This document shows positions 19,991 through 39,237 of a DNA stretch of 64,000 nt, piece by piece (position 1 is the stretch's first letter; each line of letters starts with the position of its first letter). The DNA comes from a virus, in IMG/VR virus record IMGVR_UViG_3300043607_000039, positions 29,001 to 93,000 of that record. The stretch is one strand, 5' to 3'. Under the pieces are notes generated by a model that was given only the letters and a program-made list of their open reading frames with translations, did not search any database and was not told where the DNA came from. The position numbers and the translations under genes are program-made.

Positions 19991-20032
19991 TGTCCGTAGA
20001 AGCCAGATGAAGTAACCCAGAGGGAGATGGCA

Positions 20033-21100
20033 ATGTCTGCAAACGTTGACTCGATGTTCTCGGTTCGCGAGGTTCCGTGGCACCGCGAGGGCACCATCCT
20101 CGCCGAGTACCCGGGCTCGTGGGCCGAGGCCAGGAAGCAGGCCGGTCTGGAGTGGGAGCCGATCGAGGCCGACGTCTACCGGCAGATCGGCACCGAGCAG
20201 ATCGAGCGGCCGAAGTACGAGTTCTACGCCATGGACGGCGAGACGGTGCTCTTCAAGCAGAACGGCACCGAGGTCGTCGGCGAGGAGCCGGTGTACGAGC
20301 TGAACCCCGACCACAAGCACATCGTGCGCAGCGACACGGGCGCCGTGCTCTCGGTCAACGGCAAGGGCTACACCCTCATCAACCACGACGCGATGGGCGA
20401 GATCATCGAGGCCGTCCTGGAGCAGCCGAACGTGAAGTGGGAGACGGCCGGTTCGCTCGACGGCGGGCGCAAGGTCTGGGCCCTGGCCATGTTGGACGAA
20501 CCGATCGTGCTGCCGGGCGACGACACCGCCGCCTACCCCTACCTCGCATTCACCAACTGCCACGACGGCACCGGCGCCTGCGCCCTGCGGGCCACGGCCA
20601 TCCGGGTCGTCTGCCAGAACACCTACCGCGCGGCCGAGATGGAGGGCAAGCGCACCAAGGCCACCTTCTCCTTCCGGCACTCCACCGGGTGGCGAGACCG
20701 GATCCAGCAGGCCCGTGACGCCGTTCACGGCGTGCGCCAGGAGATGGTCGAGTACCGCGAGCTGATGACCGACCTGCTGGGCGTCCCGGTCACCGCCGGC
20801 CAGCGCAAGCTGTTCATCACCGAGTTCATCCCGATGCCGCCGGCCGGGATGGTCACCGAGCGAGTCATGGGCAACGTGGAAGGCGCCCGTACCAAGCTCC
20901 GCGAGATCTTCAACTCCCCCACCACCGTCAACGTCCAGGACACCATGTACGGCGTCATCCAGGCGAGCGGGGAGTACCTGGACCACGTCCGGACCGCCCG
21001 CACCTGGGAGACCCGGCTCAACCGCAACATCATGAAGCCCGAGCCGCTGAAGGCCAAGGCTCTCAACCTGATCCGCGAGATCGTGGCCGCGGGGGTCTGA
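20033..21100 (+). CDS. DUF932 phage/plasmid-like protein
   Basis: 355 residues from ATG 20033 (GAGGGAG upstream; ATG 20027 is too close). Matches DUF932 (phage/plasmid-like TIGR03299): PWHREGT near the N terminus, VNGKGYTLINHDAMGEIIEA, YLAFTNCHDGTGAC and TAIRVVCQNTYR. The family is common in large phages and plasmids, with no proven biochemical role. Strong promoter and strong downstream terminator suggest high expression. Confidence 0.88.
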   Translation: MSANVDSMFSVREVPWHREGTILAEYPGSWAEARKQAGLEWEPIEADVYRQIGTEQIERPKYEFYAMDGETVLFKQNGTEVVGEEPVYELNPDHKHIVRSDTGAVLSVNGKGYTLINHDAMGEIIEAVLEQPNVKWETAGSLDGGRKVWALAMLDEPIVLPGDDTAAYPYLAFTNCHDGTGACALRATAIRVVCQNTYRAAEMEGKRTKATFSFRHSTGWRDRIQQARDAVHGVRQEMVEYRELMTDLLGVPVTAGQRKLFITEFIPMPPAGMVTERVMGNVEGARTKLREIFNSPTTVNVQDTMYGVIQASGEYLDHVRTARTWETRLNRNIMKPEPLKAKALNLIREIVAAGV

Positions 21101-21111
21101 CCCACAAGGCA

Positions 21112-21145
21112 GGGAGCCCTCCTCGGTCGGAGGAGGGCTCCCCTT
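21112..21145 (+). terminator. Terminator after DUF932 gene
   Basis: 13-bp perfect stem (21112-21124 with 21130-21142), 5-nt loop, followed by CTTCC. Confidence 0.7.
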
Positions 21146-21164
21146 CCACAGAAGGAGCAAGGCA

Positions 21165-21605
21165 ATGCAGATCAACGAAGAGGCTCTGACTGTCGCGCAC
21201 GTGGCCGTCGAGGACCTGCTCGTCGACATGCGGGACAGCCACATGTTCACGTTGGCGGCCAACGGGCTCGTCGTGAACAACAAGGATGGATCGCTGTCCG
21301 ACATCAAGCGCCTGGGCACGCGGCAGGGACTCCAGCTCGGCGTCGAGACCTACCTCAAGAACGTGAAGCTGTACGTGGTCATGGTCCATGACCGTCACCT
21401 CGACCCCGAGGCCCGCATCTACACCTCGGCCGACGAGGCCATCACCGTTGCCCGGGGACTTGCCCACGACATGGGCCTGGTCGACAGCGGCGATGAGGAC
21501 TTCAACGACGACGGCTTGGCTCAAGCTGGCTGGCTGTATTACGCCAACCACCCCCGTGAGAGCGACATTGTCTGGGTCGTGGAGAAGGGGATCAACGAGT
21601 CCTGA
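21165..21605 (+). CDS. Hypothetical protein
   Basis: 146 residues with AAGGAGCAAGG upstream. Begins MQINEEALTVAHVAVEDLL. A central segment, DPEARIYTSADEAITVARGLAHDM, looks like a small modulator fold. Family not recognised. Confidence 0.68.
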   Translation: MQINEEALTVAHVAVEDLLVDMRDSHMFTLAANGLVVNNKDGSLSDIKRLGTRQGLQLGVETYLKNVKLYVVMVHDRHLDPEARIYTSADEAITVARGLAHDMGLVDSGDEDFNDDGLAQAGWLYYANHPRESDIVWVVEKGINES

Positions 21606-21666
21606 CCAAGAACCCAAGCCCCGTGGATCCATGGGAACTGTTCGCCTAACCGAGAAAGGAACGCTC

Positions 21667-22137
21667 ATGAAGAACAAGCTCATCGCCGGGCTCACCGCCC
21701 TGGTTGCCCTGGTCACCGCGACCGCCTGCACCCAGCCGCTTCCGGCCAACGACACCGACCGCATCACCTTCGCCATCGAGGCCTACTACCAAGCCGATGG
21801 CGTGGAACGGTCGGTCCTGTCGCAGACCAACGTGGTCGCGAGCATCACCAACCTCACCACCAACGACATCCACATCCGGGACGGCCGCAGCGGAGCCTGG
21901 CTCGTCCTCCCCTGGGAGATGAACGAGGACTTCGATCTCCCGATCCGTTACCAGTTCACCTACGACCGTCGCGACACCAAGCTTGAGGACTTCCGCCTCG
22001 TGGTCAAGGCCCTGGTCAATGCCGACCGCGACATGCACCTGCGGTGCACCCTGTTCGACACCAACGAGCGCGTGATCACCCGCAATGAGGTCGTCATCGA
22101 CGGCTCGCTCACCGGCACCGTCAGCTGTGCCAACTGA
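21667..22137 (+). CDS. Lipoprotein
   Basis: 156 residues with GAAAGGAACG upstream. Signal peptide and lipobox ending TATAC near residue 21. Mature part is beta-rich and of MmpS/immunoglobulin-like length, though no domain is certain. One of four lipoproteins in the window. Confidence 0.7.
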   Translation: MKNKLIAGLTALVALVTATACTQPLPANDTDRITFAIEAYYQADGVERSVLSQTNVVASITNLTTNDIHIRDGRSGAWLVLPWEMNEDFDLPIRYQFTYDRRDTKLEDFRLVVKALVNADRDMHLRCTLFDTNERVITRNEVVIDGSLTGTVSCAN

Positions 22138-22204
22138 AGTGACCGAGGTATGGCCCCCCGCTGACAGGGTGGGGGCCATACCCTTATCCGGGGAAGGAGG
22201 ACAG

Positions 22205-22666
22205 GTGCCCACGACCAGACGTAGGAAGCCCGACCCGTTCATTGCCCTACTGGAAACGTACCGGGTCGCCCAAGGGATCACAGTCGCCAAGATGTGTCAA
22301 GACGCCGGCCTGAGGTCTCACATGTGGCATACGTACAAGATCGGAAATCAACAGCCTTCAGTGATATCGCTGCGGGCACTGACCCAGGCGCTGGGCCTGG
22401 AGCTGACGGTGGTTGAGACGGCAAGGTATCGGCCGAGCGCCGTGCCAGTGGTTGACGTCAAGAGGCTACAGCGCGAGTTCGGGGCGGCCATTGAGTCCGT
22501 GCAGCGCATCGGGGTCCTCCTGGAAGAGGTCGGCGACAGGTTGCTGTCACACACACAGAATGGAGCGCGCCATGTCCCAGCACATCCTGAGCCTGTCGGA
22601 GGTGGGGAAGATCCTGGGCCTGACCCCGGACACAGTGACTCGGTATATGCGCGAGTCCCTGCCTGA
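22205..22666 (+). CDS. XRE-type DNA-binding protein, candidate regulator
   Basis: 153 residues from GTG 22205, with AAGGAGG at good spacing. Residues 10-65 form a Cro/C1-type helix-turn-helix: VAQGITVAKMCQDAGL, then SVISLRALTQALGLELTVV. It is the best candidate here for a regulator of the shared promoter palindromes, but nothing links it directly. Its last 95 bases overlap the next gene in another frame, so the C-terminal tail may be short in reality. Confidence 0.72.
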   Translation: MPTTRRRKPDPFIALLETYRVAQGITVAKMCQDAGLRSHMWHTYKIGNQQPSVISLRALTQALGLELTVVETARYRPSAVPVVDVKRLQREFGAAIESVQRIGVLLEEVGDRLLSHTQNGARHVPAHPEPVGGGEDPGPDPGHSDSVYARVPA

Positions 22667-22817
22667 TGGTCGGTACGCCAGCCACCCGTTCCCGGACCCC
22701 GACGGCCGACTGGGGAACTCTCCGTACTGGCTGCCGGATCGGACTGCGGAGATCTACAACTGGGGAGTAACCCGGATCGGCCGTGGTGTAGGCGGCGGAC
22801 CTAAGACAAGGCGATAG
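22572..22817 (+). CDS. Excisionase/MerR-like HTH protein
   Basis: 81 residues. ILSLSEVGKILGLTPDTVTRYM is a classic HTH_17 (winged helix, excisionase-like) start, followed by a wing (GNSPYWLPDRTAEIYNW). Overlaps the XRE gene by 95 bases. Could control lysogeny, DNA replication or transcription; no integrase is nearby. Confidence 0.75.
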   Translation: MSQHILSLSEVGKILGLTPDTVTRYMRESLPDGRYASHPFPDPDGRLGNSPYWLPDRTAEIYNWGVTRIGRGVGGGPKTRR

Positions 22818-22819
22818 AC

Positions 22820-22851
22820 GAAGGCCCCGGGCTAGGGAACCCGGGGCCTTC
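22820..22851. terminator. Strong hairpin between convergent units
   Basis: 12-bp perfect stem (22820-22831 with 22840-22851), loop of 8. It lies between the rightward HTH gene and the leftward genes ending at 22866. Confidence 0.75.
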
Positions 22852-22865
22852 GCTGTGGGATGCGA

Positions 22866-23003
22866 TTACGTTGTGATCACTGCGAGGGCAACGAACACGA
22901 ACCCAAGCCAGCCGATGTGCACGCGACCGTATTCACCGAATCCCAGAGCCGCGACCAAGAAACAGATCCCGGCGATGATCCACAGCAGCAAGTCGATGCT
23001 CAT
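22866..23003 (-). CDS. 45-residue membrane protein
   Basis: ATG at 23003 with AAGGAAGG upstream on the minus strand. Two hydrophobic segments (LLLWIIAGICFLVAALGF and WLGFVFVALAVI) separated by a short polar turn. Lies after the Ig-like gene, in a terminase-associated position. Holin-like in size, but this cannot be shown. Confidence 0.6.
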   Translation of the reverse strand: MSIDLLLWIIAGICFLVAALGFGEYGRVHIGWLGFVFVALAVITT

Positions 23004-23015
23004 GGCTGACCTTCC

Positions 23016-23531
23016 TTACGGGGTGGGCTCGGGCTCCGGCTCCGGGGCGGGCTCATCGGGGGTGACCTCGGTGACCTCGCCGGCCACGACCTCAAGCCGC
23101 TCGGCGTCGCCGGCCACGACAACCAGAAGCAGGTCGCCAGAAGCGGTCAGCGGGCCGGTGCCCTCGACGTGGACGGTGGCCGAACCGAGCACGCCCACGG
23201 CCGCCGCCGAAGCGGTGCCATCGCCGTTGTCGGTCAGGTTGATGATCGACGGGTCGTCGACCGTGTAGACCACAACCTCACCCGCAGGCAGCGGGACCGG
23301 GTTGCCTACCTCATCTGCGGCCGCGACTGATAACGCGACCTTCTTGTCTGCCTGGAGGTCCACGAGGACATCCGCCTTTCTTGGTGGTTTGTGAGCTGGG
23401 GCTGGTCCCGCAACTCGGTCTGACTCATCCGTGTCGAGCGCCGGGCCAATATGCCAAAGCAAACGGCGCGACTCTGGGCATGGTTTGGGACAACAGCAAC
23501 CGTCAACGGTTACCTGAACGGTAATGCTCAA
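23016..23531 (-). CDS. Ig-like (Big_2-type) domain protein
   Basis: About 171 residues. Start TTG 23531 or 23534, chosen for AGGAGG upstream. Residues 60-150 read as one bacterial Ig-like domain (ADEVGNPVPLPAGEVVVYTVDD, ..NGDGTASAAAVG..GSATVHVEG), followed by a Glu/Pro-rich tail. In phages such domains decorate virions or bind the cell surface. Immediately downstream of TerL in the leftward unit. Confidence 0.65.
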   Translation of the reverse strand: MSITVQVTVDGCCCPKPCPESRRLLWHIGPALDTDESDRVAGPAPAHKPPRKADVLVDLQADKKVALSVAAADEVGNPVPLPAGEVVVYTVDDPSIINLTDNGDGTASAAAVGVLGSATVHVEGTGPLTASGDLLLVVVAGDAERLEVVAGEVTEVTPDEPAPEPEPEPTP

Positions 23532-23588
23532 CAAAGCCTCCTAGAAAGAGGCGGACGATCCTATGTTCTCATACCCGACTGCCTGGAT

Positions 23589-26500
23589 CTAGAAACCATA
23601 GTTGTACGATCCGGCGTCCTGCCATAGAGACTGAAGCGTAGAAGAAAGGGCATCCCGCGGCGACGAAATGCGAACCTCTTTCTTTTCACCATCCATCAGG
23701 AAGCGGCAGGCGTGAACTAAGGCGTCAAGTCTGTCTGGTGAATCCCTGGTGCCCCAGCCAACGAACGTGGACATCTGGTCTTCCAGCTCCTGTTGATGAC
23801 CCAGGATGTGAAGTCGGCCCTGTTCACAGCGCATGGCAACAGGCTCACCGCGGGTGCGCTTTCCGATTTTGGTATCGATGCCCACGATGGGCGGCTTGGT
23901 ATGTGCGGGGAATAGGCCCTGCCCGACCAGTTCGAAGTAAGCGTCGTGGAAGACCTGAGACATCCACTTTTTACCGAGGTTGACTTCGCAGACGAGCTTG
24001 TCGGCCCCGAACTCGGCCACCACCCGCCAGGCCTCCAGCGCGGCGGCCCGACCCACGGACATGATCGAGCGGTCGGCTAGGACGTACATGTGCTTCTGGC
24101 GGTCCCGGCCGACAACGACAATGCCCATCTCGTCGTCCTCGCCGGTGAGCGAGGGGTCGACCCCCACGACCGTGGCCACCAGATCGTCGGGGACGTCCAG
24201 GATCCGGTTGTTCTCGATGTCCAGACGGGAGAACAGGGCGCCCTCGAACGCCTCGATGATCTCGCCGTACAGCTCCTGGCGGCCGACCATCGTGCCTTCG
24301 TACCGTCGTCGAAGCTCTTCGATCACCAGGGACGAGAGGTTCGAGGCGTTCTCGAACGTGGAGCCCCGCATCAGGTGGACGGTGCCGTCGCCACGGCGCA
24401 CCCATTCCTGGAGAATGTCCACCGGCTTCGGCGTGGTGGTCACGAACGCCCGGGGGTGGTCGCCGGCCAGGTCGGCCCGGAGGGAGGGCATGATGCCTTC
24501 CTCCCACGACTTCTTCGGGAACTTCCATTTGCAGTTGTGGACCAGGATGCGACCGCTGCCGGCAAAAAACTCCGGATCATCGCCTTCGACGGTGATGTCG
24601 TAGACGTTGATTGTCTCTGGCATCCGCCGGATGCCAGAGATCCGCACCGGGTGATGTGGCGCTAGCCCACGGCCCAACATGTCTTCGGGTGCTCCGTACT
24701 TCGCGGTCCAAACGACGTCGTTGACGTGAAGCTCGGACACCTTCCGCCAGCCTTCGTCGGTCCACACCCGGTGGTCCGGCGTCAGCCTCACGGTTGCGGT
24801 GCCGCCAGTAGAGATTTCCCAGACCTCAGCGTCTGGCTGCGTGAGGCGAGACATGATGACCCTGGCGTAGCCGTTACGTGTCAGTACCTCGTCTCCGACT
24901 CGTACGTCTTGAACCGGTGTCCCCAAACGGGGACCACTCCGCGTGAGAATCGGCTCGTTCTTGGCGATACAGATCTCATCGAGCCACGCGCCCGATGAGT
25001 TATAACCACGACCAACGTCCGGGTCATCCGCACCTTCGGTATAGATCTTCGTGCCCGAAGGGAACAGCACCATGGGGCGTGGGCTCATCTTGTAGCGGTG
25101 TCGAATCTTGCGACGGTTCAGTACCTGGAGAATCCCAGCCGGCCCCTCCATGCAAATCGTCCGGCCGTCGGAAAGCGTCTCCGCGATAACCAGCCACTCG
25201 GTCGGGACACCGCGACTGTCGTAGGGGTGCTTAATCGTCTGGGAGACGATCCATTCGCTGCCACTGCGGGAGTTGTGGGTTGGGATCAGGCCCTCGCCGA
25301 CGAGGTACATGGAGTTCGGGGAGTCCACCGTGATGCAGCGCATCGGGGTCGGGTCAATTCGCTCGGCCCCGATGATCATGCGGTGCTGGGTCCGAAGCCC
25401 CTGGCCATCCGGGGGTACGTAGGTGGCCATCTTGCGGGGGGATGTGAACGGGTTGAACGTGGGGCGCCAGGAGACTCGGTACTTGGCCCCCTTGTCGACG
25501 CCGTAGAGCTGGGCCCGTCCCACATGCATGTAGGGGCGCTGGCCAAGCGAGCGGGCCAGGTGCATGACACCGTCGGCCAGCTCTTTGGTGATCGAGCAGA
25601 ACTCCACCTTGGATGCTTCGCCGTAACCGTCGGAGTCCATGAGGCCAGCGAGAAGCGCCCTGCGCTGTTCCACCGACGCCCAGAGGTACTTCTGGGGAAC
25701 ATGCTTGTTGTCCAGAACGTCGATGTGACGCAACTGACTAACCAGGCCGCCGGGCGTTCCCGTGAACCACTGCCCGTCCCTAGGCCTGAGTAGGCAATCG
25801 AAGCCTGCATCAATGACGCACTCCACGACGTGGTCGATGTCGGCTAGGTGACCGGAAATAGTCCCGGCAGAAGTTGAGCCGTTGCCCAGCCAGTAGCCAA
25901 GTAGCCACGGATCCACCGTCAGGCGCACCTCCGGCAACTCAAGAGCGCCGGTCAGGGGAATCGAATGGTTCAGGTCACCACGGGCGTTGTATGTCAGCGT
26001 GTCTACGAGGTCCTGTGTGGTTCTGATTCGGGGGCCAGGGCCTTCTTGATCCCGGTACGGTGGGTTGCTCTTGTGCCGCTTCATGGGGCGCCATGTTGGC
26101 CAGTCCAGCGGGAACCTGGTCGTGTCGGATTCGTACTGGGAGCGGAGGTACGCCTTCCGATCTCTGTGTTCCCACGTCACCCATTGGTGCTCTGAGCATG
26201 TATCGATGTACAGGCCGTCGTTAAAGGTCAACCGGTAGGCGACCTCTGGGTCTTGGTCAAACGTCGCGGTGACCCGGCACGGCTTACCGGCTTCGTCGAA
26301 AACCCAGTCCCCGACCTCCAGATCACCGAGCTTCTTGAATCCGCCCCGGCCTGGCACGGGTCGACGGCGTTCATCGGTGCTACAGTTCGCAACTGGAATA
26401 GATGTAGATACGTCGATCGCCTTTCCCCAACCGCGGCCAGCCAATGCCAGGCACACGAACCAGTTACCGGGCGGCGGAATCTGCTCGGGACGGGCTACCC

Positions 26501-26615
26501 ACCACCAGTCGCCACGCATAATCTCGTCAATAACCCAGTCAGGTTGCTCGGCTAGCCACGCTCTCCTGTCAATTTCAGGAAGCGCAGCGACTCGGTCCTG
26601 GAGAGATAACGCCAT
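23589..26615 (-). CDS. terL: Terminase large subunit carrying two inteins
   Basis: 1008 residues, of which about 479 are extein. The ATPase P-loop is GRGWGK + S (residues 60-65 and 449), split by intein 1; Walker B ends at WLDEI (residue 548), exactly where intein 2 sits. The C-terminal RNase H-like nuclease shows VVGVDPSLTGEDDE, a middle acidic motif in KLVCEVN, and a final DRLDALVHA. The protein powers DNA packaging and cuts the genome end. Both inteins must splice for activity. Confidence 0.93.
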   Translation of the reverse strand: MALSLQDRVAALPEIDRRAWLAEQPDWVIDEIMRGDWWWVARPEQIPPPGNWFVCLALAGRGWGKAIDVSTSIPVANCSTDERRRPVPGRGGFKKLGDLEVGDWVFDEAGKPCRVTATFDQDPEVAYRLTFNDGLYIDTCSEHQWVTWEHRDRKAYLRSQYESDTTRFPLDWPTWRPMKRHKSNPPYRDQEGPGPRIRTTQDLVDTLTYNARGDLNHSIPLTGALELPEVRLTVDPWLLGYWLGNGSTSAGTISGHLADIDHVVECVIDAGFDCLLRPRDGQWFTGTPGGLVSQLRHIDVLDNKHVPQKYLWASVEQRRALLAGLMDSDGYGEASKVEFCSITKELADGVMHLARSLGQRPYMHVGRAQLYGVDKGAKYRVSWRPTFNPFTSPRKMATYVPPDGQGLRTQHRMIIGAERIDPTPMRCITVDSPNSMYLVGEGLIPTHNSRSGSEWIVSQTIKHPYDSRGVPTEWLVIAETLSDGRTICMEGPAGILQVLNRRKIRHRYKMSPRPMVLFPSGTKIYTEGADDPDVGRGYNSSGAWLDEICIAKNEPILTRSGPRLGTPVQDVRVGDEVLTRNGYARVIMSRLTQPDAEVWEISTGGTATVRLTPDHRVWTDEGWRKVSELHVNDVVWTAKYGAPEDMLGRGLAPHHPVRISGIRRMPETINVYDITVEGDDPEFFAGSGRILVHNCKWKFPKKSWEEGIMPSLRADLAGDHPRAFVTTTPKPVDILQEWVRRGDGTVHLMRGSTFENASNLSSLVIEELRRRYEGTMVGRQELYGEIIEAFEGALFSRLDIENNRILDVPDDLVATVVGVDPSLTGEDDEMGIVVVGRDRQKHMYVLADRSIMSVGRAAALEAWRVVAEFGADKLVCEVNLGKKWMSQVFHDAYFELVGQGLFPAHTKPPIVGIDTKIGKRTRGEPVAMRCEQGRLHILGHQQELEDQMSTFVGWGTRDSPDRLDALVHACRFLMDGEKKEVRISSPRDALSSTLQSLWQDAGSYNYGF
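24534..24971 (-). mobile_element. Intein 2 in TerL (mini-intein at Walker B)
   Basis: TerL residues 549-694 (about 146). Starts with Cys (CIAKNEPILT), has block B-like TPDHRVWT, and ends ILVHN before Cys. It is too small for a homing endonuclease domain. Removal joins WLDEI to CKWKF. Confidence 0.88.
25272..26420 (-). mobile_element. Intein 1 in TerL (P-loop) with LAGLIDADG domain
   Basis: TerL residues 66-448 (about 383). Begins with Ala rather than Cys (AIDVSTSIPV), contains block B-like CSEHQWVTWE, a LAGLIDADG motif LLAGLMDSDGYGE near residue 321 and another around LLGYWLGNG near 238, and ends GLIPTHN before Ser. Splicing recreates GRGWGKS. Confidence 0.88.
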
Positions 26616-26655
26616 AGCAATGAATGCTAGATCAAACGCATGGGAAAATAGGGGT

Positions 26656-26820
26656 GTGGAACGTATTCCGGTCGACGAAATCCTGGCCTATTTGGAGGCC
26701 ACCCAGCCCGACCTGATGGACCCGGGTGAGGACCGGTGGGGTGGGGCCAACCTCTACGACCCCCGCCTGCTTCAAGATCCAGAAGTTGCTGGTCCCGAAA
26801 CTCTTGACACCCCCACGTAG
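26656..26820 (+). CDS. 54-residue hypothetical protein
   Basis: Divergent from TerL. GTG 26656 with only AGGGGT just upstream; acidic protein beginning with VDEILAYLEA. Its TAG stop lies in the promoter at 26804. Plausible but weakly supported. Confidence 0.4.
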   Translation: MERIPVDEILAYLEATQPDLMDPGEDRWGGANLYDPRLLQDPEVAGPETLDTPT

Positions 26821-26834
26821 GGGTCAGGTACAGT
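26804..26834 (+). promoter_or_regulatory. Promoter with palindromic spacer (copy 6)
   Basis: TTGACA 26804-26809, spacer with CCCCCACGTAGGGG, TACAGT 26829-26834 (spacer 19; GGTACA would give 17). It feeds a long structured leader. Confidence 0.65.
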
Positions 26835-26840
26835 TGGTCT

Positions 26841-27435
26841 ACGCCCGGAGGAACGGTCAAGGCCGGGACGAGGAACTTGACAACTGAAGATGGCGACAGT
26901 GCTCTGAGGTGGCCCGCAGCAACGTGTCTGCTGGCCGAGAGGCCACTACACTGTCGTCTACGGACGGAGCAGCCACAAGGCCCCTCCCCAGGATCGCCAC
27001 TGAGGCGCCCGTCCTAGCCCACGTCGCCACGGGTTTTTCCTTTCTCCCCGTGACCGGCAGACCGACCGGACGGCTCCTCCTCCGGTGGGCGATGGAGGAG
27101 CAAGCTTCCCTCGGGGGGATGCGAAACAGGGCCACGGTGGAGAAACCCACCGGGGCCCTGCTTCGTGAAACGGTGCGTCGCAAGCATGGGGCGCTTCAAG
27201 CTCCCGATCACGGGAGAAAGGCGGGGACCTTGCCCGGGGTTAAGGCCCCCGCCTTCCTTGGGGGGTTGTTACTCTGCATGGACCACGGGCCGTTGGGGAC
27301 AGCGGCCTGTCGCGGAGGAACGGCCGTTCCTGCCTGGAAAAAGCGAATAAGGGTCCAAGGACCGCGCACTGGGATCCCCGGAGCACCGGAACCACTGTCC
27401 CCACCTCAACTACCTGGAGAGAGTCGAGGGTTCAC
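26841..27435 (+). ncRNA. Structured gene-free leader, possible noncoding RNA
   Basis: About 600 bases with no supported gene. Several strong folds: a nested stem from CGACAGTG (26894) to CACTGTCG (26956) with GTGGCC/GGCCAC and CAGCA/TGCTG inside; CAGGGCC..GGCCCTG near 27130; AAGGCGGGG/CCCCGCCTT near 27220; palindrome GGAACGGCCGTTCC near 27320. The open frame across it has atypical composition. Starts below promoter copy 6 and ends at CTGGAGAGAG before the gene at 27440. Confidence 0.5.
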
Positions 27436-27439
27436 CATC

Positions 27440-27886
27440 GTGAGCATGTACAACATGGTTTTCGGCTCAGAAGGGCCTGCCAAGCGCGGACAAGTCCTCT
27501 TGGCCATGCTGGGTTTCACGAGCTTCACCAACGTCGGCCGGTACCGCGACGCCTGGGTGGAGACCTCGGAGGACGGCCCGATCATCGCCATCTACACCCG
27601 CAACGGCGGAGGCAACCGCGAGAGCTGCTGGCAGCCTGACGGCGCCTTCCAGAACTCGGTCGAATGTGACTGCCCGGCCTGTGTGGCCAACTACCGCATG
27701 CCCGCCCACCCGGGGTGGGCGATGGGCCGTGACGACGAGTTCGACTCCACGTATCGGACCGAGTACTTCCAGGCGCCCGCCGAGTACCTGGACCTGTTGG
27801 AGCCCGTGGCTGGCGATCCCGTCGACACTTCCCAGAGGTGGCACGAGGCCATCGCGAACCTGGACCCGGCCAATGCTAACCATTGA
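27440..27886 (+). CDS. Conserved phage hypothetical protein
   Basis: 148 residues from GTG 27440 (or ATG 27446). MYNMVFGSEGP start, IAIYTRNGGGNRE, and DDEFDSTYRTEYF match a conserved phage protein family of unknown function. CECPAC-like cysteines (CDCPAC) lie mid-protein. The much longer upstream frame is rejected because it runs through the structured leader. Overlaps the next gene by 14 bases. Confidence 0.75.
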   Translation: MSMYNMVFGSEGPAKRGQVLLAMLGFTSFTNVGRYRDAWVETSEDGPIIAIYTRNGGGNRESCWQPDGAFQNSVECDCPACVANYRMPAHPGWAMGRDDEFDSTYRTEYFQAPAEYLDLLEPVAGDPVDTSQRWHEAIANLDPANANH

Positions 27887-28487
27887 GGACAAGGCCTGGA
27901 TGGCAGGGGTCATTGACCTCAAGGGCCGAATGATCCGGAAGCGAAACCAAGATCGGCGCACCACGCAGACCCTGGTCTACGTGGAGAGCAAGCAGCACGA
28001 GGTCATCCGGGCGCTCAGCAAGCTCACAGGCACCAAGCCCGAGGCCAAGAAGCAGTCGACCCTGAGCGAGTTCATCAGGGTGCAGTGCAAGGAACACTGT
28101 CCCGACGCCCACATTCACGTCCGAGACGGCTGGTCCATGCCCACCACCACGCGGTGGACGATCACCGGCGGCCCGATGGTGGTCGTCATGCTCAGCTTGC
28201 TGCCTTACCTGCGGGTTGACCGCGGGTACCAGGAGGCGATCGACGCGATCATGGAGACTCAGTCGCTCGCCGGCCAGGGTGCGCATGCAATCTGGGCCAA
28301 CATCAAACGGCTCATGGATCTCGGGTGGACGCTGCCGGAGGTCTACCAGGAGCCGATGAAGGCCTGGACCGGGCTGGCTCAGGTTGGCGGCCGGCCGATG
28401 GTGGTGGCATCGGAGCCAGAACGGTTGCGTGACATCACGTTCCTGGATGACGATGAGATGATGGTCGTTGCTGCAAGGCCCCGGTAG
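27873..28487 (+). CDS. LAGLIDADG-like endonuclease family protein
   Basis: 204 residues. Starts with WMAGVIDLKGRM, which matches a LAGLIDADG helix, and has RWTITGGPMVVVMLSLLPYLRV followed by a Gln/Glu helix, the usual second half of these nuclease-like folds. The acidic residue of the motif is preserved (D) but a Lys replaces the usual Gly-adjacent acid, so activity is uncertain. Its TAG stop lies in the tRNA-Arg that follows. Confidence 0.6.
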   Translation: MLTIEDKAWMAGVIDLKGRMIRKRNQDRRTTQTLVYVESKQHEVIRALSKLTGTKPEAKKQSTLSEFIRVQCKEHCPDAHIHVRDGWSMPTTTRWTITGGPMVVVMLSLLPYLRVDRGYQEAIDAIMETQSLAGQGAHAIWANIKRLMDLGWTLPEVYQEPMKAWTGLAQVGGRPMVVASEPERLRDITFLDDDEMMVVAARPR

Positions 28488-28550
28488 CTCAGTGGATAGA
28501 GCGCCGTCCTCCTAAGACGGAAGTCACTGGTTCAAGTCCAGTTCGGGGCA
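28478..28550 (+). tRNA. tRNA-Arg(CCT), outside the main array
   Basis: Acceptor GCCCCGG/TCGGGGC; perfect stem CCGTC/GACGG with loop CTCCTAA; T-arm ACTGG/CCAGT. Reads AGG. Its first ten bases overlap the previous CDS end. Confidence 0.92.
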
Positions 28551-28853
28551 CGGTTGGACAAGCCGAAAAGCCTTCGGGCCGATCCCTTCGCGCCAGCCAC
28601 GTAGGTCGACGCTTCAAGGTTCTGACGACCTACGTTTCATAACTAAAACAAGAACCCCGGGCGTTTTAGCTGGTGGAGTTTCGGCCCTTAACTAAAGCTC
28701 CCCCCCACCCGGGAGCTACCCGTGGAGCGAGGCGACGGTATACGGACGCTGAGCGGTGATACGGGGCCCGGGTGGTTACAACAATCCACATTGGACGAAG
28801 GAGGTGCGTCATGACCTAGGTAGCCAGAAGTTCTGGCCTTCAGAGAGGTCGCC
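28551..28853 (+). other. Gene-free stretch with inverted repeats and a two-codon ORF
   Basis: Contains ACGTAGGTCG..CGACCTACGT near 28599-28640, GGGAGC/GCTCCC near 28700, and a strong GAAGGAGGTG followed by ATG-ACC-TAG at 28811-28819. No normal gene seen. Confidence 0.5.
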
Positions 28854-29264
28854 ATGTCCCGCACCGACAAGGACCGCCCGTGGTGGATCCGGTCCGAGTG
28901 GTATGAACCCGTTCACTACAACTGCATGTACTACCAGGGCTACCAGACATGTGACCGCAGCCGAGTGTGCGACCTGCCGCCCGAACCCGTGCGGGGGAAC
29001 TTTTCGTACCCTTCTGCCGGCCACCGGTACGGCCCACGCGCACAATGCATCTGGTACCCCATGTGGCCCCGCCGCGTTCGGTACAACTACACCCGTCCCC
29101 CAACCCGAGTGGATAAGCACCTCGGCTGGTGGGGACCGGATCGACGAGACGTCCGAGACCTGATGATCAAGGCTCGGAAGCAGTACCGCGGGTATCGAGA
29201 GGTGGAGATCCTTGAGCCCGTGAGGCATCACCGTCACGCCGGCAAAGCAGGCTGGTGGGACTGA
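28854..29264 (+). CDS. MSRTD-family protein, paralog of 3550
   Basis: 136 residues, very rich in Tyr, Trp and Arg. Start MSRTDKDRPWW parallels the gene at 3550. Four Cys and several His residues could bind metal. Ribosome-binding site AGAGAGG. No function known. Confidence 0.65.
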   Translation: MSRTDKDRPWWIRSEWYEPVHYNCMYYQGYQTCDRSRVCDLPPEPVRGNFSYPSAGHRYGPRAQCIWYPMWPRRVRYNYTRPPTRVDKHLGWWGPDRRDVRDLMIKARKQYRGYREVEILEPVRHHRHAGKAGWWD

Positions 29265-29297
29265 ACCAATCACCTGGAGAGAGTGAGAACGACCGTA

Positions 29298-30878
29298 ATG
29301 GCAAAGTTGGTCCCCGGAAATGGCCTCGTGATGGCCGACCCGGTACTCACCGGAGAACTACTGAACGACTTCATGGAGAGCGTGCAGGACCGCGCTCGCA
29401 AGGCGAAGGAGCCGACCCAGGAGGAGAAGCTCCGCGACGCGGTGACGGCCCTGCTGCACGCGCTCGGCGAGATGCGGGTCCAGGAGGACGCGCTCACGTT
29501 CGAGGGGGACAAGTTCATCTTCCCCGGCTCGTACGAGGGCAAGATCCCGGCCGTCATCGACTTCCTGCGCAACTACATGAAGCAGGAGGAGATGCGTTTC
29601 GACTTCAACAAGACGCTCCCCTACCGCCCGTACGACGGCGCCTACGCCTTCATGACCGTGATGCGCCAGCTGACCGGCACCACCGGCTTCGGCGTGAACC
29701 GGATGACCTTCTTCGGCCCCGAGCCGCCGGAGTTCATCTCCATCCCGATCAACGCGAAGGGCGACACGGCCCAGATCCCCTGGGGTCTGGTCGAGTTCCC
29801 GGCCTACGGCGCCAAGTTCGACGTCGGCGCGGTGCGGACTGACAGCGGCTACACGTTCCACCTGACGGTGAACGCGCCCCGCAAGCACCGCAAGGAGATC
29901 GAGGCGATCTTCAGCCTGATCGAGAAGCACCTCAAGGACAACTCGATCTACCGCGGTCAGGCCATCAACGGCCACGACATGCAGCCCGAGTTCATCGACC
30001 TGTCCCGGGTCGACCCGGAGAAGGTGGTCTACAGCCAGTCGGTCATGGACGACCTGCTGACCCACGTGTGGGCGCCGATCCGGTTCACGGAGCGGTACCG
30101 CAACCAGGGCATGCCGCTCAAGCGCGCGGTGCTGTTCGCTGGCCCCTTCGGTACCGGCAAGACCCTGGGCTGCTTGCTCACCGCGAAGGAGGCGGTCGAG
30201 CAGGGCTGGACCTTCATCATGTGCCGGACCGGCCAGGACAAGCCGGCCGACGTCATCAAGACGGCCGAGCTGTACGCCCCCGCGGTCGTGGTCATCGAGG
30301 ACCTCGACGTGCACGCGGGCTCGTCCACCAAGGTCGAGATTTCGCAGCTGCTGGAGATGCTCGACGGTGCGGTGAACAAGGGCAACGAGATCATCGGCCT
30401 GTTCACCACGAACCACATCGAGGACATCCAGAAGGGCGCGCTGCGTCCTGGCCGCATCGACGCGGTCATCGAGATCACCGACCTCGATGAGCCGGCTTTC
30501 CGTCGGCTGATCATCAACAACATCGGTGCGGACTGGTTGGCTGACGACGTGGACTACACGGCCGTCGCTGAGGCCATGCACGGGTTCCTGCCGGCCTTCG
30601 TGGCCCAGGCCGCTCAGCGGTCCCTGGGGTACATCATGGCCCGCAACAACGGCCAGCCCGGCGTGGTCGACACCGAGGCACTGGTGGGTGCGGCCCGTAC
30701 TCTGCGGCCTCAGCTGGAGCTGATGGACGGGGCGAAGGAGGGCGTCCGTCCGAACCTACTGGAGGACGCGATCCGTGACGTCGTGGACGGGTCGCTCAAG
30801 CGGACCCGACTCAACACCCACGACGACTACCGACTCCAGGTCGAGCCGCCCACGGTGCTCAACGGAGGCAAGAGCTAA
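29298..30878 (+). CDS. AAA+ ATPase (classic AAA clade)
   Basis: About 526 residues; ATG 29298 preferred, though GTG 29283 behind GGAGAGAG is possible. N-terminal 240 residues are not recognised. The AAA module shows Walker A GPFGTGKT near 282, Walker B VVVIEDLD, sensor 1 FTTNH, and arginine-finger region LRPGRID, followed by an alpha-helical lid. Such proteins are hexameric unfoldases or remodelers. Strong terminator follows, so it may be a high-expression single gene. Confidence 0.88.
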   Translation: MAKLVPGNGLVMADPVLTGELLNDFMESVQDRARKAKEPTQEEKLRDAVTALLHALGEMRVQEDALTFEGDKFIFPGSYEGKIPAVIDFLRNYMKQEEMRFDFNKTLPYRPYDGAYAFMTVMRQLTGTTGFGVNRMTFFGPEPPEFISIPINAKGDTAQIPWGLVEFPAYGAKFDVGAVRTDSGYTFHLTVNAPRKHRKEIEAIFSLIEKHLKDNSIYRGQAINGHDMQPEFIDLSRVDPEKVVYSQSVMDDLLTHVWAPIRFTERYRNQGMPLKRAVLFAGPFGTGKTLGCLLTAKEAVEQGWTFIMCRTGQDKPADVIKTAELYAPAVVVIEDLDVHAGSSTKVEISQLLEMLDGAVNKGNEIIGLFTTNHIEDIQKGALRPGRIDAVIEITDLDEPAFRRLIINNIGADWLADDVDYTAVAEAMHGFLPAFVAQAAQRSLGYIMARNNGQPGVVDTEALVGAARTLRPQLELMDGAKEGVRPNLLEDAIRDVVDGSLKRTRLNTHDDYRLQVEPPTVLNGGKS

Positions 30879-30897
30879 GCCTTACTCTCTCCACCCC

Positions 30898-30948
30898 GCC
30901 CCGGGGGTTCAGGTCTCTGCCATCGACCTGGGCCCCCGGGGCTTTTTT
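30898..30948 (+). terminator. Rho-independent terminator after AAA gene
   Basis: GCCCCGGGGG...CCCCCGGGGC stem with an inner pair CAGGTC/GACCTG, followed by six T at 30943-30948. Confidence 0.9.
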
Positions 30949-30980
30949 GTGTCCAAAACGGACGACTTCACAGAAGAGCC

Positions 30981-31010
30981 TTGACTCACCCGTACGTCCC
31001 CCTGTAACTT
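30981..31010 (+). promoter_or_regulatory. Promoter (copy 7) for the ParB-like genes
   Basis: TTGACT 30981-30986, 18-base spacer with CACCCGTACGTCCCCC, TAACTT 31005-31010. Same -35 and -10 as the promoter at 19961. Confidence 0.7.
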
Positions 31011-31046
31011 CGGTGACGACGGAAATCTACGAAGTTGAGGTGGCCG

Positions 31047-32024
31047 ATGGGGAACGATGGCACGGGTGTCACTCGACCGATGAGGTACATCCTGAACGGA
31101 AACGCAGCCTCGATCCGAGTCGACGATCGAGGCATCAAGGATCTGGCTGACGACATCGAGGATCGCGGCCTCATCCTTCCCGTCCTGGTGGCGCCAGACA
31201 ACCTGATCCTCAGCGGCTGCCGCCGGGTCGCGGCGATGGACCTACTGGGCTGGACCCGGGTGCCGGTCGTCGTCACGGACGACTGGGAGCGAGTCGTCGA
31301 GCACTTCAAGAACGAGGTCAAGGTGGCCGCAGATTTGGGCCTGCCATCTGAGCCTCTTTACCTCCGAGAGTTCGACGAACTGGTAGACCGTCGACTGCGC
31401 CAAATCTTTGAGCCCGAGCGCCGTCGGCGGTTGGGTGTGGCCATCAGTCTCGCCCGGGCATCCAGGGGGAATGGCTTGAAGGCCGCGGATCGCAAGCACC
31501 CCAATCATCACCGAAACAGTTTCACGGACTCGGTGATAGAGATGCTGAACATGCCGGCGACTCAGGTCACGACCTCGCGAGAGATCATGGCCAAGGTCAA
31601 GCTGTGCAAGGAACGCAGTGCAGATTTGGGCCTGCGGGCCGAGGAAGCGTTGGACAAGGTTCAAAGGTACGGCGGCCGTCTCCACTCCCTCAAGCGAATG
31701 CTCGGCGACATGCTTGAGGGCCGAGAAAACGTCCAGTACCGGCTCTTGATCGATGGGCCTGCTGTCGTCCAGCCAGCACCCCAAAAGTCTCGGGAGCCAG
31801 ACCGACGTTTGGCCGAGGAGCAAGTGGCAGCGATAAACCGACTCCTCGACATGTACGAGGCTCTCGGGGACATGGTCCGCGAGATCGGAGACCTCAACGT
31901 AGCTGTTGATCCCGAGACGGTTGCCGCGCTCCAGAAGAGGTACGGCAACGCACAACGAAAGGTCGGAGTCCTTCGCTCCTACCTGAACAACGTCAACTCC
32001 AGGAGAGAGAGTAACGACGCATGA
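31047..32024 (+). CDS. ParB/sulfiredoxin-fold domain protein
   Basis: 325 residues from ATG 31047 (GAGGTGG upstream). N-terminal ParB-like domain: IKDLADDIEDRGLILPVLV, LILSGCRRVAAMDLLGW. The C terminus is helical with coiled-coil character. Role may be DNA binding, nuclease or partition-like. ATGA overlap with the following ParB-like gene. Confidence 0.82.
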   Translation: MGNDGTGVTRPMRYILNGNAASIRVDDRGIKDLADDIEDRGLILPVLVAPDNLILSGCRRVAAMDLLGWTRVPVVVTDDWERVVEHFKNEVKVAADLGLPSEPLYLREFDELVDRRLRQIFEPERRRRLGVAISLARASRGNGLKAADRKHPNHHRNSFTDSVIEMLNMPATQVTTSREIMAKVKLCKERSADLGLRAEEALDKVQRYGGRLHSLKRMLGDMLEGRENVQYRLLIDGPAVVQPAPQKSREPDRRLAEEQVAAINRLLDMYEALGDMVREIGDLNVAVDPETVAALQKRYGNAQRKVGVLRSYLNNVNSRRESNDA

Positions 32025-32926
32025 ACGCAAAGTTCAGTTCGGCAGACACTGCGGATGCGACGGACGTGGCTGACGTGGCGACGGACGCCCCCGAAGCAAC
32101 GTTCGTGGCGGAGAACTCGCCCCGACACAAGGTCCGGCGGGGCACGATCAGCTGGGACGAGATCGTCGTGGATCCACGGGTCCAGCGGCCCCAGAACCGC
32201 CCCTTGATCAACAAGATCAAGCGGGAGTTCAACAAGGACGCCCTCAACACCATCGTGATCAGCGTCCGTCAGCCCGACCTCGACGACCGGGACCAGGACG
32301 AGCATGTGATCCTGGACGGTCAGCAGCGGACCACCGGCGCACACGAAGTGGGCTACGACGGCCCGTTCCACGCCGTCTTCCACTACGGCCTGAGTCTCCA
32401 GGACGAGGCGAAGCTGTTCCGCCTTCTCCAGGTCCGGGTGTCCGTCCCGGTCAAGGAGCAGTTCCGGGTCGCCCTCTACGAGGGCCGTCCCGACGCGACC
32501 GGCATCATGCAGGTCCTCAACGCCCTGGGCATCAAGCTCGACCCCAACGGTGGCTTCATCGCCGTGGGCGTGGCCCTGCGGATCGCGGCCCGGCCCGACG
32601 GCCTGACCAACTTCCACTGGGCGCTCAAGATCATCCAGGATGTGTACTCCGCGGACGACCCGTCGCCCTACGACGGCCGCCTCGTGGAGGCGCTGGCTCA
32701 GCTGCGGGCGCGGCACGGCAACGCCTTCAGCACCGAGCGGATCATGAAGAAGCTGCGGTCCTCCGGCAAGACGGTCGACGGCCTCATCGGTGACGCGAAG
32801 GTGCGTCGCTCGGTGAACAAGGGCACCTCGACCCAGAGCCTGGCCGACACCCTCGTCAAGGTCTTCAACGACGGGCTCCAGAAGAACGGGCCGAACACCC
32901 TGCCCTTCTGGAACGAGAAGCCGTAA
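32021..32926 (+). CDS. ParB-like protein, DUF6551-type
   Basis: 301 residues. DPRVQRPQNRPLINKI, then VILDGQQRTTGAHEVG, the family's version of the ParB GxRR region, and KLFRLLQVRVSV. The first 35 residues are Ala/Asp-rich and disordered. Function unknown; the operon with another ParB-like protein suggests a joint role. Confidence 0.78.
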   Translation: MNAKFSSADTADATDVADVATDAPEATFVAENSPRHKVRRGTISWDEIVVDPRVQRPQNRPLINKIKREFNKDALNTIVISVRQPDLDDRDQDEHVILDGQQRTTGAHEVGYDGPFHAVFHYGLSLQDEAKLFRLLQVRVSVPVKEQFRVALYEGRPDATGIMQVLNALGIKLDPNGGFIAVGVALRIAARPDGLTNFHWALKIIQDVYSADDPSPYDGRLVEALAQLRARHGNAFSTERIMKKLRSSGKTVDGLIGDAKVRRSVNKGTSTQSLADTLVKVFNDGLQKNGPNTLPFWNEKP

Positions 32927-33019
32927 GCTCAAGAGCACGTTGTACCGTCCTCTGGGGCAAGCCCTCGGTTGCGTAGCCCCGCAGCCGAGGGCTTGTTCTG
33001 TGTGTGGCAGAGTGTCCGG

Positions 33020-33208
33020 GTGATTACCGAAGCCTGGAGCAAGAGCAGTTACAGCAACAACAACGGGGCGTGCGTCGAGGTCCGTCGGGACGGGGCATCG
33101 GTCCTCGTCCGGGACACCAAGGACCGCGAGGGGGGCACCCTCACCTTCAACCGGCGCGAGTGGCTGGCCTTCGTCGCTGGCGCTAAGCAGGGTGACTTCG
33201 ACCTTTAA
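33020..33208 (+). CDS. DUF397 protein 3
   Basis: 62 residues from GTG 33020. WSKSSYSNNNGACVEV, VLVRDTKDREGG and FVAGAKQGDFDL are the full DUF397 pattern. Third DUF397 gene in the window; closes before a strong terminator. Confidence 0.88.
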   Translation: MITEAWSKSSYSNNNGACVEVRRDGASVLVRDTKDREGGTLTFNRREWLAFVAGAKQGDFDL

Positions 33209-33230
33209 CGATCTCCCCCGAACCTCCTGC

Positions 33231-33270
33231 AAAAAACCCAGAACTTCTTCCCAGAAGTTCTGGGTTTTTT
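33231..33270. terminator. Bidirectional rho-independent terminator
   Basis: A6, then CCCAGAACTTCT (33237-33248), loop TCCC, perfect complement 33253-33264, then T6. Confidence 0.92.
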
Positions 33271-33320
33271 GTCGGTGATCAGGTGTACGTTCCATTGCAC
33301 CTGGAGGAGGGGGTCAGTAG

Positions 33321-34100
33321 ATGGTCGACGATGACGGCTTCGCCCGGTTACCTGGGCCCAACCCGGCCGCCCTCGCGCTCAAGCAGGAGCTGAGCGAGAT
33401 CATCCTGTGGACCGAGCAGAACTCCCCGCGGTCCAAGCAGGTGGCCATCGGCCCATCCGAGCTGGGCGACCCGTGTGACCGCCGGCTGGCCTACCGCATC
33501 GCTGGCGTACCGCCCGTGAACATCTGGTCCGACCCATGGCCGGCCATCGTGGGCACCGCGGTCCACTCCTGGCTCGACAAGGCCATCAACGGGTACCAGG
33601 GGATCAACGGGGACCGGGGCTGGCTAACCGAACTGCGGGTCTCGCCCGACGAGATGGTGCAAGGCTCCAGCGACGTGTTCAACGTCCGGACCGGGACGGT
33701 GGTCGACCACAAGACGTGTGGGGTCGACACGATCCGCAAGCTCCACAAGGGAGGGTCACCCTCCCCGGGCTACATCACGCAGATCCAGCTGTACGGGCTC
33801 GGACATAAGCGAGCCGGCCGCGAGGTCAAGAACGTAGCGTTGATCTTCTACCCCCGCTCGGGCTGGCTCGACGATGCCTTCGTCTGGATCACTCCCTACG
33901 ACGAGTCCGTCGCCACCCGCGCCCTGGACCGGATGTATCAGATCGGCGGCCGGCTGATCGAGCTTGACATCGAATCGAACCCACACCGATTTCAATTAAT
34001 CGATGCCACGCCTGGCGACAGCTGTGTGTGGTGCTCGCACTTCTGCAAGGACAAGGACCCCGACATAGCAGCCGACGAGAAGGGATGCCCAGGACGATGA
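33321..34100 (+). CDS. PD-(D/E)XK nuclease, Cas4/RecB-like
   Basis: 259 residues with GGAGGAGGG upstream. Motifs in order: an early Cys in LGDPCDRRLAYR, GTAVHSWLDKAI (His motif), SSDVFNVRTGTVVDHKT (D...DxK), and YITQIQLYGLG (QxxxY). Three C-terminal Cys (CVWCSHFCKD.. C) complete a probable Fe-S cluster as in Cas4. Likely a 5'-3' exonuclease in phage recombination or replication. Confidence 0.88.
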   Translation: MVDDDGFARLPGPNPAALALKQELSEIILWTEQNSPRSKQVAIGPSELGDPCDRRLAYRIAGVPPVNIWSDPWPAIVGTAVHSWLDKAINGYQGINGDRGWLTELRVSPDEMVQGSSDVFNVRTGTVVDHKTCGVDTIRKLHKGGSPSPGYITQIQLYGLGHKRAGREVKNVALIFYPRSGWLDDAFVWITPYDESVATRALDRMYQIGGRLIELDIESNPHRFQLIDATPGDSCVWCSHFCKDKDPDIAADEKGCPGR

Positions 34101-34687
34101 GGCCACCATGCAGTGTTGGCGGGTGCAACGGAGCCCACAAGGGGCTCGGTTACTGCATCAAGCACTATTACTGCTTTAAGCGGAATGGGACTGCCGTTCC
34201 GAAGGAACGGCATTGGCGCAAGGCTGCGATTCCCCTCGAAGTATTGGTCCGTACTGGCCTATGTGAGTGTGGATGTGGGCTTCGAACAAAAATAGCAACT
34301 CGTACGCACACAGGGCACGGGATATATGCAGGATTTCCTAATAGGTTCTTAGTCGGTCACGGTAACGCTAAAGGGCGAAGTCATATCGACCAACATGGAT
34401 ATCGGCTCATTCGGAACGAGGATCACAGCGCATCCGGAAGCAGGGGATACGTTGCTGAACACCGAGTTGTAATGGCCCAGATAATAGGTCGTAAATTATG
34501 GAACTTTGAAACCGCTCACCATCTCAATGGAATTCGCTCCGATAACCGGCCTGAGAATCTTGAACTTTGGGCCAAGCCGCAGGTTCCGGGCCAACGCGTC
34601 CAGGACCTTGTGAACTGGGTCATTGAGAACTACCTCACCGAAATCGAAGTTGCCCTGAAAGAAAGAGAGGCTCATGGCCATCGATAA
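34085..34687 (+). CDS. HNH homing-type endonuclease, AT-rich
   Basis: About 200 residues. N-terminal Cys cluster (CSVGGCN, GYCIKHY), CECGCG, then the HNH_3 core AEHRVVMAQIIGRKL and AHHLNGIRSDNRPENLEL. Clearly more AT-rich than the nuclease before it and the primase after it, which suggests recent insertion. Overlaps the nuclease end by 16 bases. Confidence 0.82.
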   Translation: MPRTMRPPCSVGGCNGAHKGLGYCIKHYYCFKRNGTAVPKERHWRKAAIPLEVLVRTGLCECGCGLRTKIATRTHTGHGIYAGFPNRFLVGHGNAKGRSHIDQHGYRLIRNEDHSASGSRGYVAEHRVVMAQIIGRKLWNFETAHHLNGIRSDNRPENLELWAKPQVPGQRVQDLVNWVIENYLTEIEVALKEREAHGHR

Positions 34688-35146: not shown

Positions 35147-35165
35147 GTTCAAAAGGAGGAAGCAG

Positions 35166-35381: not shown

Positions 35382-35409
35382 AAAGCAATTTTCCTGAGGA
35401 GAGAACAAG

Positions 35410-36096: not shown

Positions 36097-36116
36097 ATCG
36101 CTGAGGGTGCTGACGG

Positions 36117-39034: not shown

Positions 39035-39040
39035 CTCCCT

Positions 39041-39130: not shown

Positions 39131-39150
39131 ACACAACTACAGACTTTGCA

Positions 39151-39228: not shown

Positions 39229-39237
39229 CTATAACTA

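What the first reader, a model, noticed from the sequence alone, without database searches (positions are those of the whole stretch)
23589..26615. Two inteins splitting the P-loop and the Walker B motif of TerL
Intein 1 (383 aa, LAGLIDADG, Ala at position 1) lies between GRGWGK and S; intein 2 (about 146 aa, no endonuclease) lies just after WLDEI. Both sit in the ATPase active site, so packaging waits for two splicing events.
Basis: partly seen in the sequence, partly recalled or inferred. Interest (0 to 1): 0.7.

Follow-up and report, generated by a model that had tools for sequence, protein, structure and literature searches.

The report
Two inteins in phage packaging motor
A bacterial virus carries two self-splicing protein inserts inside the two ATP-binding motifs of its DNA-packaging motor; such inserts are a known kind of genetic parasite, but close relatives break the same motif with a conserved reading-frame shift instead, which is unusual.

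Summary
ORF 23589-26615 (minus strand, 1008 aa) is a TerL precursor with two inteins. Intein 1 (383 aa) lies in Walker A (GRGWGK|S), has the Trp-Cys-Thr signature of class 3 inteins and models like PI-SceI. Intein 2 (146 aa) lies in Walker B (WLDEI|C) and is a class 1 mini-intein. Of 79 related viral loci, 70 run straight through both sites: the expected empty sites. Both sites, and double-intein TerLs, are in print: a new member of a known kind. That packaging waits for splicing is inference.

The relatives are more interesting. (i) Eight carry a larger Walker B intein; the seven I compared hide an HNH endonuclease in another frame, which is the constrained frame. (ii) Four, including the window's nearest kin, break Walker A with a +1 frameshift (GGM TTT CGG) kept through synonymous saturation with purifying selection on both sides: probably programmed. 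(iii) Streptomyces phage phiHau3 has 10-nt frame-breaking inserts at Walker A and beside Walker B. Walker A of TerL looks like a recurrent site for removable interruptions; whether through homing immunity, regulation or coincidence is open.

The parts
23589..26615 (-). TerL precursor ORF (1008 aa, two inteins; 479 aa after splicing)
26421..26615 (-). N-extein (65 aa), ends in the first part of Walker A, AGRGWGK (26421-26441)
25272..26420 (-). Intein 1: 383-aa class 3 intein with LAGLIDADG domain, inserted GK|S in Walker A
26181..26183 (-). Block B Trp (intein residue 80) of the class 3 WCT signature
25335..25337 (-). Block F Cys (intein residue 362), proposed first nucleophile
   Evidence: role from the class 3 mechanism, PMC5050341
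25278..25280 (-). Block G Thr (intein residue 381), third residue of WCT; then H382 N383 | S
25878..25904 (-). LAGLIDADG motif 1, LLGYWLGNG (Asn for the catalytic Asp)
25626..25655 (-). LAGLIDADG motif 2, LLAGLMDSDG (intact)
24972..25271 (-). Middle extein (100 aa), Ser+1 of Walker A to Walker B WLDEI (24972-24986)
24534..24971 (-). Intein 2: 146-aa class 1 mini-intein (C1, TxxH, HN|C), inserted after WLDEI; the HNH-bearing insert of its relatives is absent
23592..24533 (-). C-extein: rest of ATPase and nuclease domain

Best explanation
The gene makes a 1008-aa TerL precursor that must splice twice. Intein 1 removes itself by the class 3 route: its block F Cys attacks the Lys-Ala junction, Ser+1 takes over, and Asn383 cyclises; this restores Walker A (GRGWGK-S). 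Intein 2 removes itself by the class 1 route (Cys1, then Cys+1, then Asn146 cyclises) and restores Walker B (WLDEI-CKW). The product is an ordinary 479-aa TerL. The two inteins are unrelated mobile elements that settled separately in the most conserved DNA of the gene: intein 1 still has a LAGLIDADG domain (perhaps impaired); intein 2 is a stripped relative of an HNH-bearing intein found at the same site in other phages. Shown by sequence: anatomy, class signatures, empty sites, folds, kinship. Inferred: that splicing occurs, its order and speed, and loss of the HNH gene in the window's lineage.
For: Coordinates and junctions. Empty sites in 70 of 79 relatives, 45-79% identical (corrected). 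W, C and T invariant in 7 of 7 intein 1 rows. Intein 1 model: pLDDT 78, best PDB match PI-SceI E 4e-21, class 3 DnaB splicing domain also matched. Intein 2 model: pLDDT 88, matches NrdJ-1, MchDnaB, gp41-1 and MtuRecA inteins (TM 0.70-0.78) and NpuDnaB (0.82). Same Walker A site used in a TerL about 62% identical (L059 = L014, intein 55% identical) and in unrelated TerLs (Clavibacter CMP1, Stenotrophomonas SOVA965, Rhodobacter RcDurkin). Same Walker B site in L007-L011, L086 and L089; splicing parts 42-58% identical to intein 2 in the six compared, L009 being a copy of L008. Both sites are in print in TerL (PMC5050341, passages).
Against: No splicing was observed. Pfam's Intein_splicing score (30.1) is below its cut-off (35.8) and Hint_2 too. 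Intein 2 has no confirmed close relative in IMG/VR by the pattern search (5 stretches, none confirmed). The exact pair (LAGLIDADG intein at GK|S plus intein at DEI|C) was found in none of the 79 loci.
Confidence: 0.9

Rival explanations
1. The inteins are kept as a switch: TerL stays without ATPase until a late or stress signal lets both splice, so that packaging starts at the right time.
For: Both inserts disable the ATP site. Double interruption recurs: a second TerL family (L015) has a class 3 intein in Walker A and a class 1 mini-intein in Walker B. The Walker A site is closed by a +1 frameshift in relatives. Mic1 authors proposed intein control of TerL (PMC7156551, passages).
Against: 70 of 79 relatives have no interruption at either site. 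Five TerL inteins of mycobacteriophages spliced quickly in a reporter (PMC5050341, passages). No condition dependence was tested here.
Confidence: 0.2
2. Arms race over the Walker A DNA: it is a homing target, and alleles that carry an insert there (intein, extra base, 10-nt insert) are immune to further homing; splicing or recoding pays the cost. The frameshift would be to P-loop inteins what the T4 gene 60 coding gap is thought to be to its neighbouring homing endonuclease.
For: The window's nearest TerL kin (L007, L008; L007 83% identical over 471 columns) have the frameshift about 7 bases from the intein site. Shift kept under purifying selection. 10-nt inserts at Walker A in phiHau3, GreenWeasel and BroPlease. 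T4 precedent is in PMC5009743 (passage).
Against: No cleavage data. Intein 1's first LAGLIDADG motif looks damaged in the window and most of its relatives. Exact sister placement of window and L007/L008 is weak (93/26).
Confidence: 0.25
3. The inserts are not inteins but tolerated Hint-like domains, or TerL is a decaying copy and another TerL does the work.
For: Pfam scores for the splicing domain are sub-threshold.
Against: All splicing residues present; the inserts fall inside Walker A and Walker B, which would kill the ATPase if kept; ORF open over 1008 codons; no second Terminase_6N match in G000, though that search also missed this split gene.
Confidence: 0.03

Closest known systems
TerL1-a (Walker A, K|T) and TerL1-e (Walker B) inteins of mycobacteriophages (Kelley et al. 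2016, PMC5050341; passages seen)
   Same: Same motifs; class 3 and class 1 inteins among phage inteins; active LAGLIDADG endonucleases in two TerL inteins; intein-free relatives
   Different: In the passages seen, these are described as separate insertions in different phages' TerLs; here one TerL has both, of two different classes
Cyanophage Mic1 TerL with two inteins (PMC7156551; passages seen) and crAss-like OBYQ01000140 TerL with two Hint-Hop inteins (PMC7886860; passages seen)
   Same: One TerL, two inteins; Mic1 also one with and one without endonuclease
   Different: Mic1: ATPase and nuclease domains, Cys at the intein boundaries; not both ATP-site motifs
Class 3 DnaB inteins of mycobacteria (PDB 6rix, 6bs8)
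   Same: WCT signature and P-loop ATPase host (the latter recalled); best PDB sequence match of intein 1
   Different: Those solved are 139-146 aa without endonuclease; intein 1 has LAGLIDADG
ShiLan domain: out-of-frame HNH in a phage methylase (Arsenault et al. 2025, PMC11855218; abstract and sections 3.6 and 4.3 seen)
   Same: Hidden HNH gene in another frame of an open insertion, as in the Walker B inteins of relatives
   Different: ShiLan is reported to lack splicing domains; here the HNH sits inside inteins with intact splicing blocks
Streptomyces phage phiHau3 terminase, putative translational bypass (PMC5009743 passages; primary paper not held)
   Same: Walker A of TerL broken at the DNA level and presumably restored after transcription
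   Different: 10-nt inserts instead of an intein or a single-base shift

Membership tests
Intein (general) | In-frame insertion absent from homologues; flanks join to a normal protein | tested here: met
   70 of 79 loci contiguous at both sites; A1 alignment
Intein (general) | Hint fold | tested here: met
   Intein 2 model vs PDB inteins, TM up to 0.82; intein 1 vs PI-SceI and MchDnaB-1
Intein (general) | Protein splicing observed | not testable with these tools
   needs expression and mass spectrometry
Class 3 intein (intein 1) | No nucleophile at position 1; Trp-Cys-Thr in blocks B, F, G | tested here: met
   A1; W80, C362, T381 invariant in 7 of 7; WCT definition from PMC5050341
Class 1 intein (intein 2) | Nucleophile at position 1, TxxH in block B, HN end, nucleophile at +1 | tested here: met
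   C1, T64 and H67, H145 N146, C+1
Active LAGLIDADG homing endonuclease (intein 1) | Two motifs, each with its catalytic acid | tested here: not met
   Motif 1 LLGYWLGNG (Asn), motif 2 LLAGLMDSDG; L020 alone of 6 relatives has Asp in motif 1. That this Asp is catalytic is recalled
Programmed +1 frameshift (relatives L007-L010, not the window) | Frame break conserved across lineages, both sides under purifying selection | tested here: met
Programmed +1 frameshift (relatives L007-L010, not the window) | Measured fusion product | not testable with these tools
   needs a reporter or mass spectrometry

The most novel reading that the evidence does not exclude
The ATP-site DNA of phage terminases, Walker A above all, is a convergent site for interruptions that are undone only after transcription: inteins (window, L059, L015, CMP1 and others), a +1 programmed frameshift (L007-L010) and 10-nt bypassed inserts (phiHau3, GreenWeasel, BroPlease). 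These are interchangeable answers to one pressure: immunity to homing at the most conserved DNA of the genome, or holding the packaging motor silent. In the window's own clade of 10 rows the Walker A site is interrupted in 4 (one intein, three frameshifts).
Probability: 0.35. Interest if true: 0.78.

Novelty: new member of a known kind. Interest (0 to 1): 0.52.

Why it matters
The window shows both halves of one ATP site interrupted by inteins of two mechanistic classes, a neat natural substrate for asking whether intein order and class matter. The wider survey gives a direct test of an old question: are inteins in P-loops mere parasites in conserved DNA, or regulators? Because sister phages interrupt the same codons by frameshift or bypass, which a homing parasite does not explain by itself, comparing these alleles for homing immunity and for timing of packaging would separate the two ideas.

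Tried and rejected
Group I intron at the P-loop of L007-L010: rejected; both frames abut with no spacer, and Rfam finds nothing but tRNAs at or above its gathering scores in L007, L010, L011 and L001. Assembly or sequencing error for the frameshift: unlikely; four contigs from four metagenome records, three distinct alleles, synonymous sites near saturation between L007 and L010. Decay of TerL there: rejected by pN far below pS on both sides. Rare A-site codon as driver: not supported, CGG is 24-27% of Arg codons in G001 and G003 and both encode tRNA-Arg(ccg). Conserved downstream RNA structure: inconclusive; z -2.3 for L008 and L010 but +1.0 for L007. Further cases of the exact shift pattern: 5 contigs in IMG/VR, four being those of L007-L010, the fifth (L107) an unrelated in-frame gene. 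Intein 2 relatives in IMG/VR by pattern: none confirmed. Bacterial genome contigs: 95 stretches, none confirmed. Pacc40 gp60, matched by intein 2, has a separate LAGLIDADG intein there; it is not shown to be an HNH-bearing intein. Two comparisons with L086 used a wrong frame and were dropped; redone.

Full report
WHAT IS THERE. The window is part of a 93-kb IMG/VR phage record, G000, with 43 tRNA genes predicted in the window. The minus-strand ORF 23589-26615 is open over 1008 codons. One search gives the anatomy: N-extein, intein 1 (383 aa), middle extein (100 aa), intein 2 (146 aa), C-extein. Pfam recognises the terminase, the LAGLIDADG domain and, below cut-off, the splicing domains. The best PDB sequence matches are mycobacterial DnaB class 3 inteins for intein 1 (2.9e-13) and MtuRecA inteins, weakly (0.0015), for intein 2. 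No near DNA match exists among the GenBank phages held for 20000-40000 of the window.

EMPTY SITES. The joined exteins match 294 phage records and 79 IMG/VR loci. By tblastn 72 of 79 seemed unbroken, but in L086 and L089 the match stops in a Walker B intein, so 70 of 79 are unbroken at both sites. Of the 9 others, Walker A is interrupted in 5 (L059 by an intein, L007-L010 by a frame break) and Walker B by an intein in 8 (L007-L011, L085, L086, L089; in L085 the site is a few residues earlier, W|CDE). One unbroken locus, L081, has an in-frame stop in the match. No bacterial genome contig gave a confirmed relative.

INTEIN 1. It has Ala at position 1 and the Trp-Cys-Thr set, invariant in 7 of 7 rows. 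Relatives occur in 717 phage records. Of four opened, three insert at GK|S/T of Walker A in other TerL families (SOVA965, CMP1, RcDurkin), and LittleE's lies elsewhere in TerL. The model (pLDDT 78) resembles PI-SceI. LAGLIDADG motif 1 has Asn for Asp in the window and 5 of 6 relatives, so cleavage may be lost or reduced.

INTEIN 2 AND A HIDDEN HNH GENE. It has Cys1, TxxH, HN and Cys+1; the model (pLDDT 88) matches canonical inteins. Its splicing parts are 38-58% identical to the larger Walker B inteins of the seven relatives compared (L009 being a copy of L008). Those carry about 120-130 extra residues with a Ser/Thr-rich look. Reading the other frame explains it: an HNH ORF of about 160 aa overlaps the insert. 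Eight such ORFs were scanned (six from Walker B inteins, two from C-terminal TerL inteins of Highwayman and MD07), and 8 of 8 hit HNH_3 above cut-off. In the pairwise comparisons that stand (7 of the 9, with the 2 L086 rows dropped, plus 3 with L086 done in the right frame), pN/pS in the HNH frame is 0.15-0.64, while in the intein frame it is 0.98-1.61. So the HNH frame is the one under constraint, and the intein frame is merely kept free of stops, which synonymous reshuffling would leave open in 5-26% of cases per ORF. The window's intein lacks this insert. A free-standing HNH-like stretch lies at 34460-34564 of the window (45.7% identity, E 9e-4). In print I found hidden HNH genes in methylase insertions said not to be inteins (PMC11855218: abstract, sections 3.6 and 4.3); my searches bearing on hidden HNH genes in inteins showed in their listings only this work and a 2025 genome announcement of an out-of-frame HNH in a methylase (PMC12613952, listing only).

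THE P-LOOP FRAMESHIFT. In L007-L010 Walker A reads GGM TTT CGG RAA: frame 0 gives GRGF then a stop within 8 codons, and the next frame gives FGKSR. Between L007 and L010 synonymous differences are near saturation (pS 0.67, 0.91, 0.75 for the parts before the shift, after it, and after the intein) while pN is 0.15, 0.11, 0.15; for L007 and L008 the part just after the shift has pS 0.68 and pN 0.019. L009 equals L008. Between shifted pairs, codons 49-63, just before the shift, share more synonymous choices (10 of 12 for L007/L010, 9 of 12 for L008/L010) than the gene as a whole (42%); 10 and 42 of 448 windows do as well. Pairs of shifted with unshifted genes show little excess (42% vs 36%; 58% vs 47%). 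Overlap of windows and small numbers make this suggestive only. On a tree of 79 rows (window, 70 unbroken and 8 of the 9 interrupted loci, L009 left out as a copy), the shift needs at least two changes: L007/L008 group with the window and L004 (99/90), L010 with L011 and L013 (95/91). I read this as a programmed +1 frameshift in which tRNA-Phe slips from UUU to UUC; the product was not measured. Literature: 'programmed ribosomal frameshifting' with 'terminase' and 'large subunit' gave four papers; in passages of three of them only the Hau3 bypass bears on TerL; the fourth was seen only in the listing.

AN INDEPENDENT PARALLEL. In Streptomyces phages phiHau3 and GreenWeasel TerL has a 10-nt insert exactly at Walker A (KGWG|KDPL) and a second 10-nt insert just before the Walker B strand (RS|TFVVLNE), each giving an in-frame TTA codon; BroPlease has the first only; phiScoe10 and Alsaber have neither. 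A review says that phiHau3 may use bypassing at KGWG-UUA (PMC5009743, passages). I saw no mention of the second insert there; the primary paper was not held. A second double-intein TerL of another family, L015, has a class 3 intein in Walker A and a 133-aa class 1 intein in Walker B.

VERDICT. The reported finding is real and ordinary in kind: both insertion sites (PMC5050341) and double-intein TerLs (PMC7156551, PMC7886860) are in print (passages). The delay of packaging is inference. The value lies in the comparison: the same Walker A codons are interrupted by inteins, by a conserved frameshift in the nearest kin, and by bypass-type inserts in unrelated phages. Whether this is homing immunity, regulation or coincidence cannot be told from sequence.

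Noticed in passing
L007:2133-2642, L010:4501-5058, L011:3481-3966, L085:3409-3924, L086:2221-2826, L089:3334-3966: HNH endonuclease ORFs hidden in another frame of Walker B inteins; the HNH frame is the constrained one.
   Followed up: yes
L007:1582, L008:743, L009:4004, L010:4001: Conserved +1 frame break in Walker A of TerL, probable programmed frameshift.
   Followed up: yes
L129:2614-2623 and about L129:2920-2933 (phiHau3); L130, L131: 10-nt frame-breaking inserts at Walker A and beside Walker B of Streptomyces phage TerLs, giving TTA codons.
   Followed up: partly
L015:943-3930: Second TerL with inteins in both Walker A (class 3) and Walker B (133-aa class 1).
   Followed up: partly
window 6766-6838; L122:17405-17477; L123:6540-6614: tRNA with anticodon cta (called Pyl by ARAGORN, perhaps an amber suppressor) in the window and in G004; G004 also has a tRNA with a four-base anticodon tcag.
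   Followed up: no
window 27873-28487: Free-standing gene next to TerL whose start (AWMAGVIDLKG) resembles a LAGLIDADG motif by eye; Pfam finds nothing.
   Followed up: partly
L103, L104 (Microbacterium phages Pumpernickel and Zooman): TerL with a class 3-like intein at a third site, after VEGE in the ATPase domain.
   Followed up: no
window 34460-34564: Free-standing stretch similar to the hidden HNH of L089.
   Followed up: no
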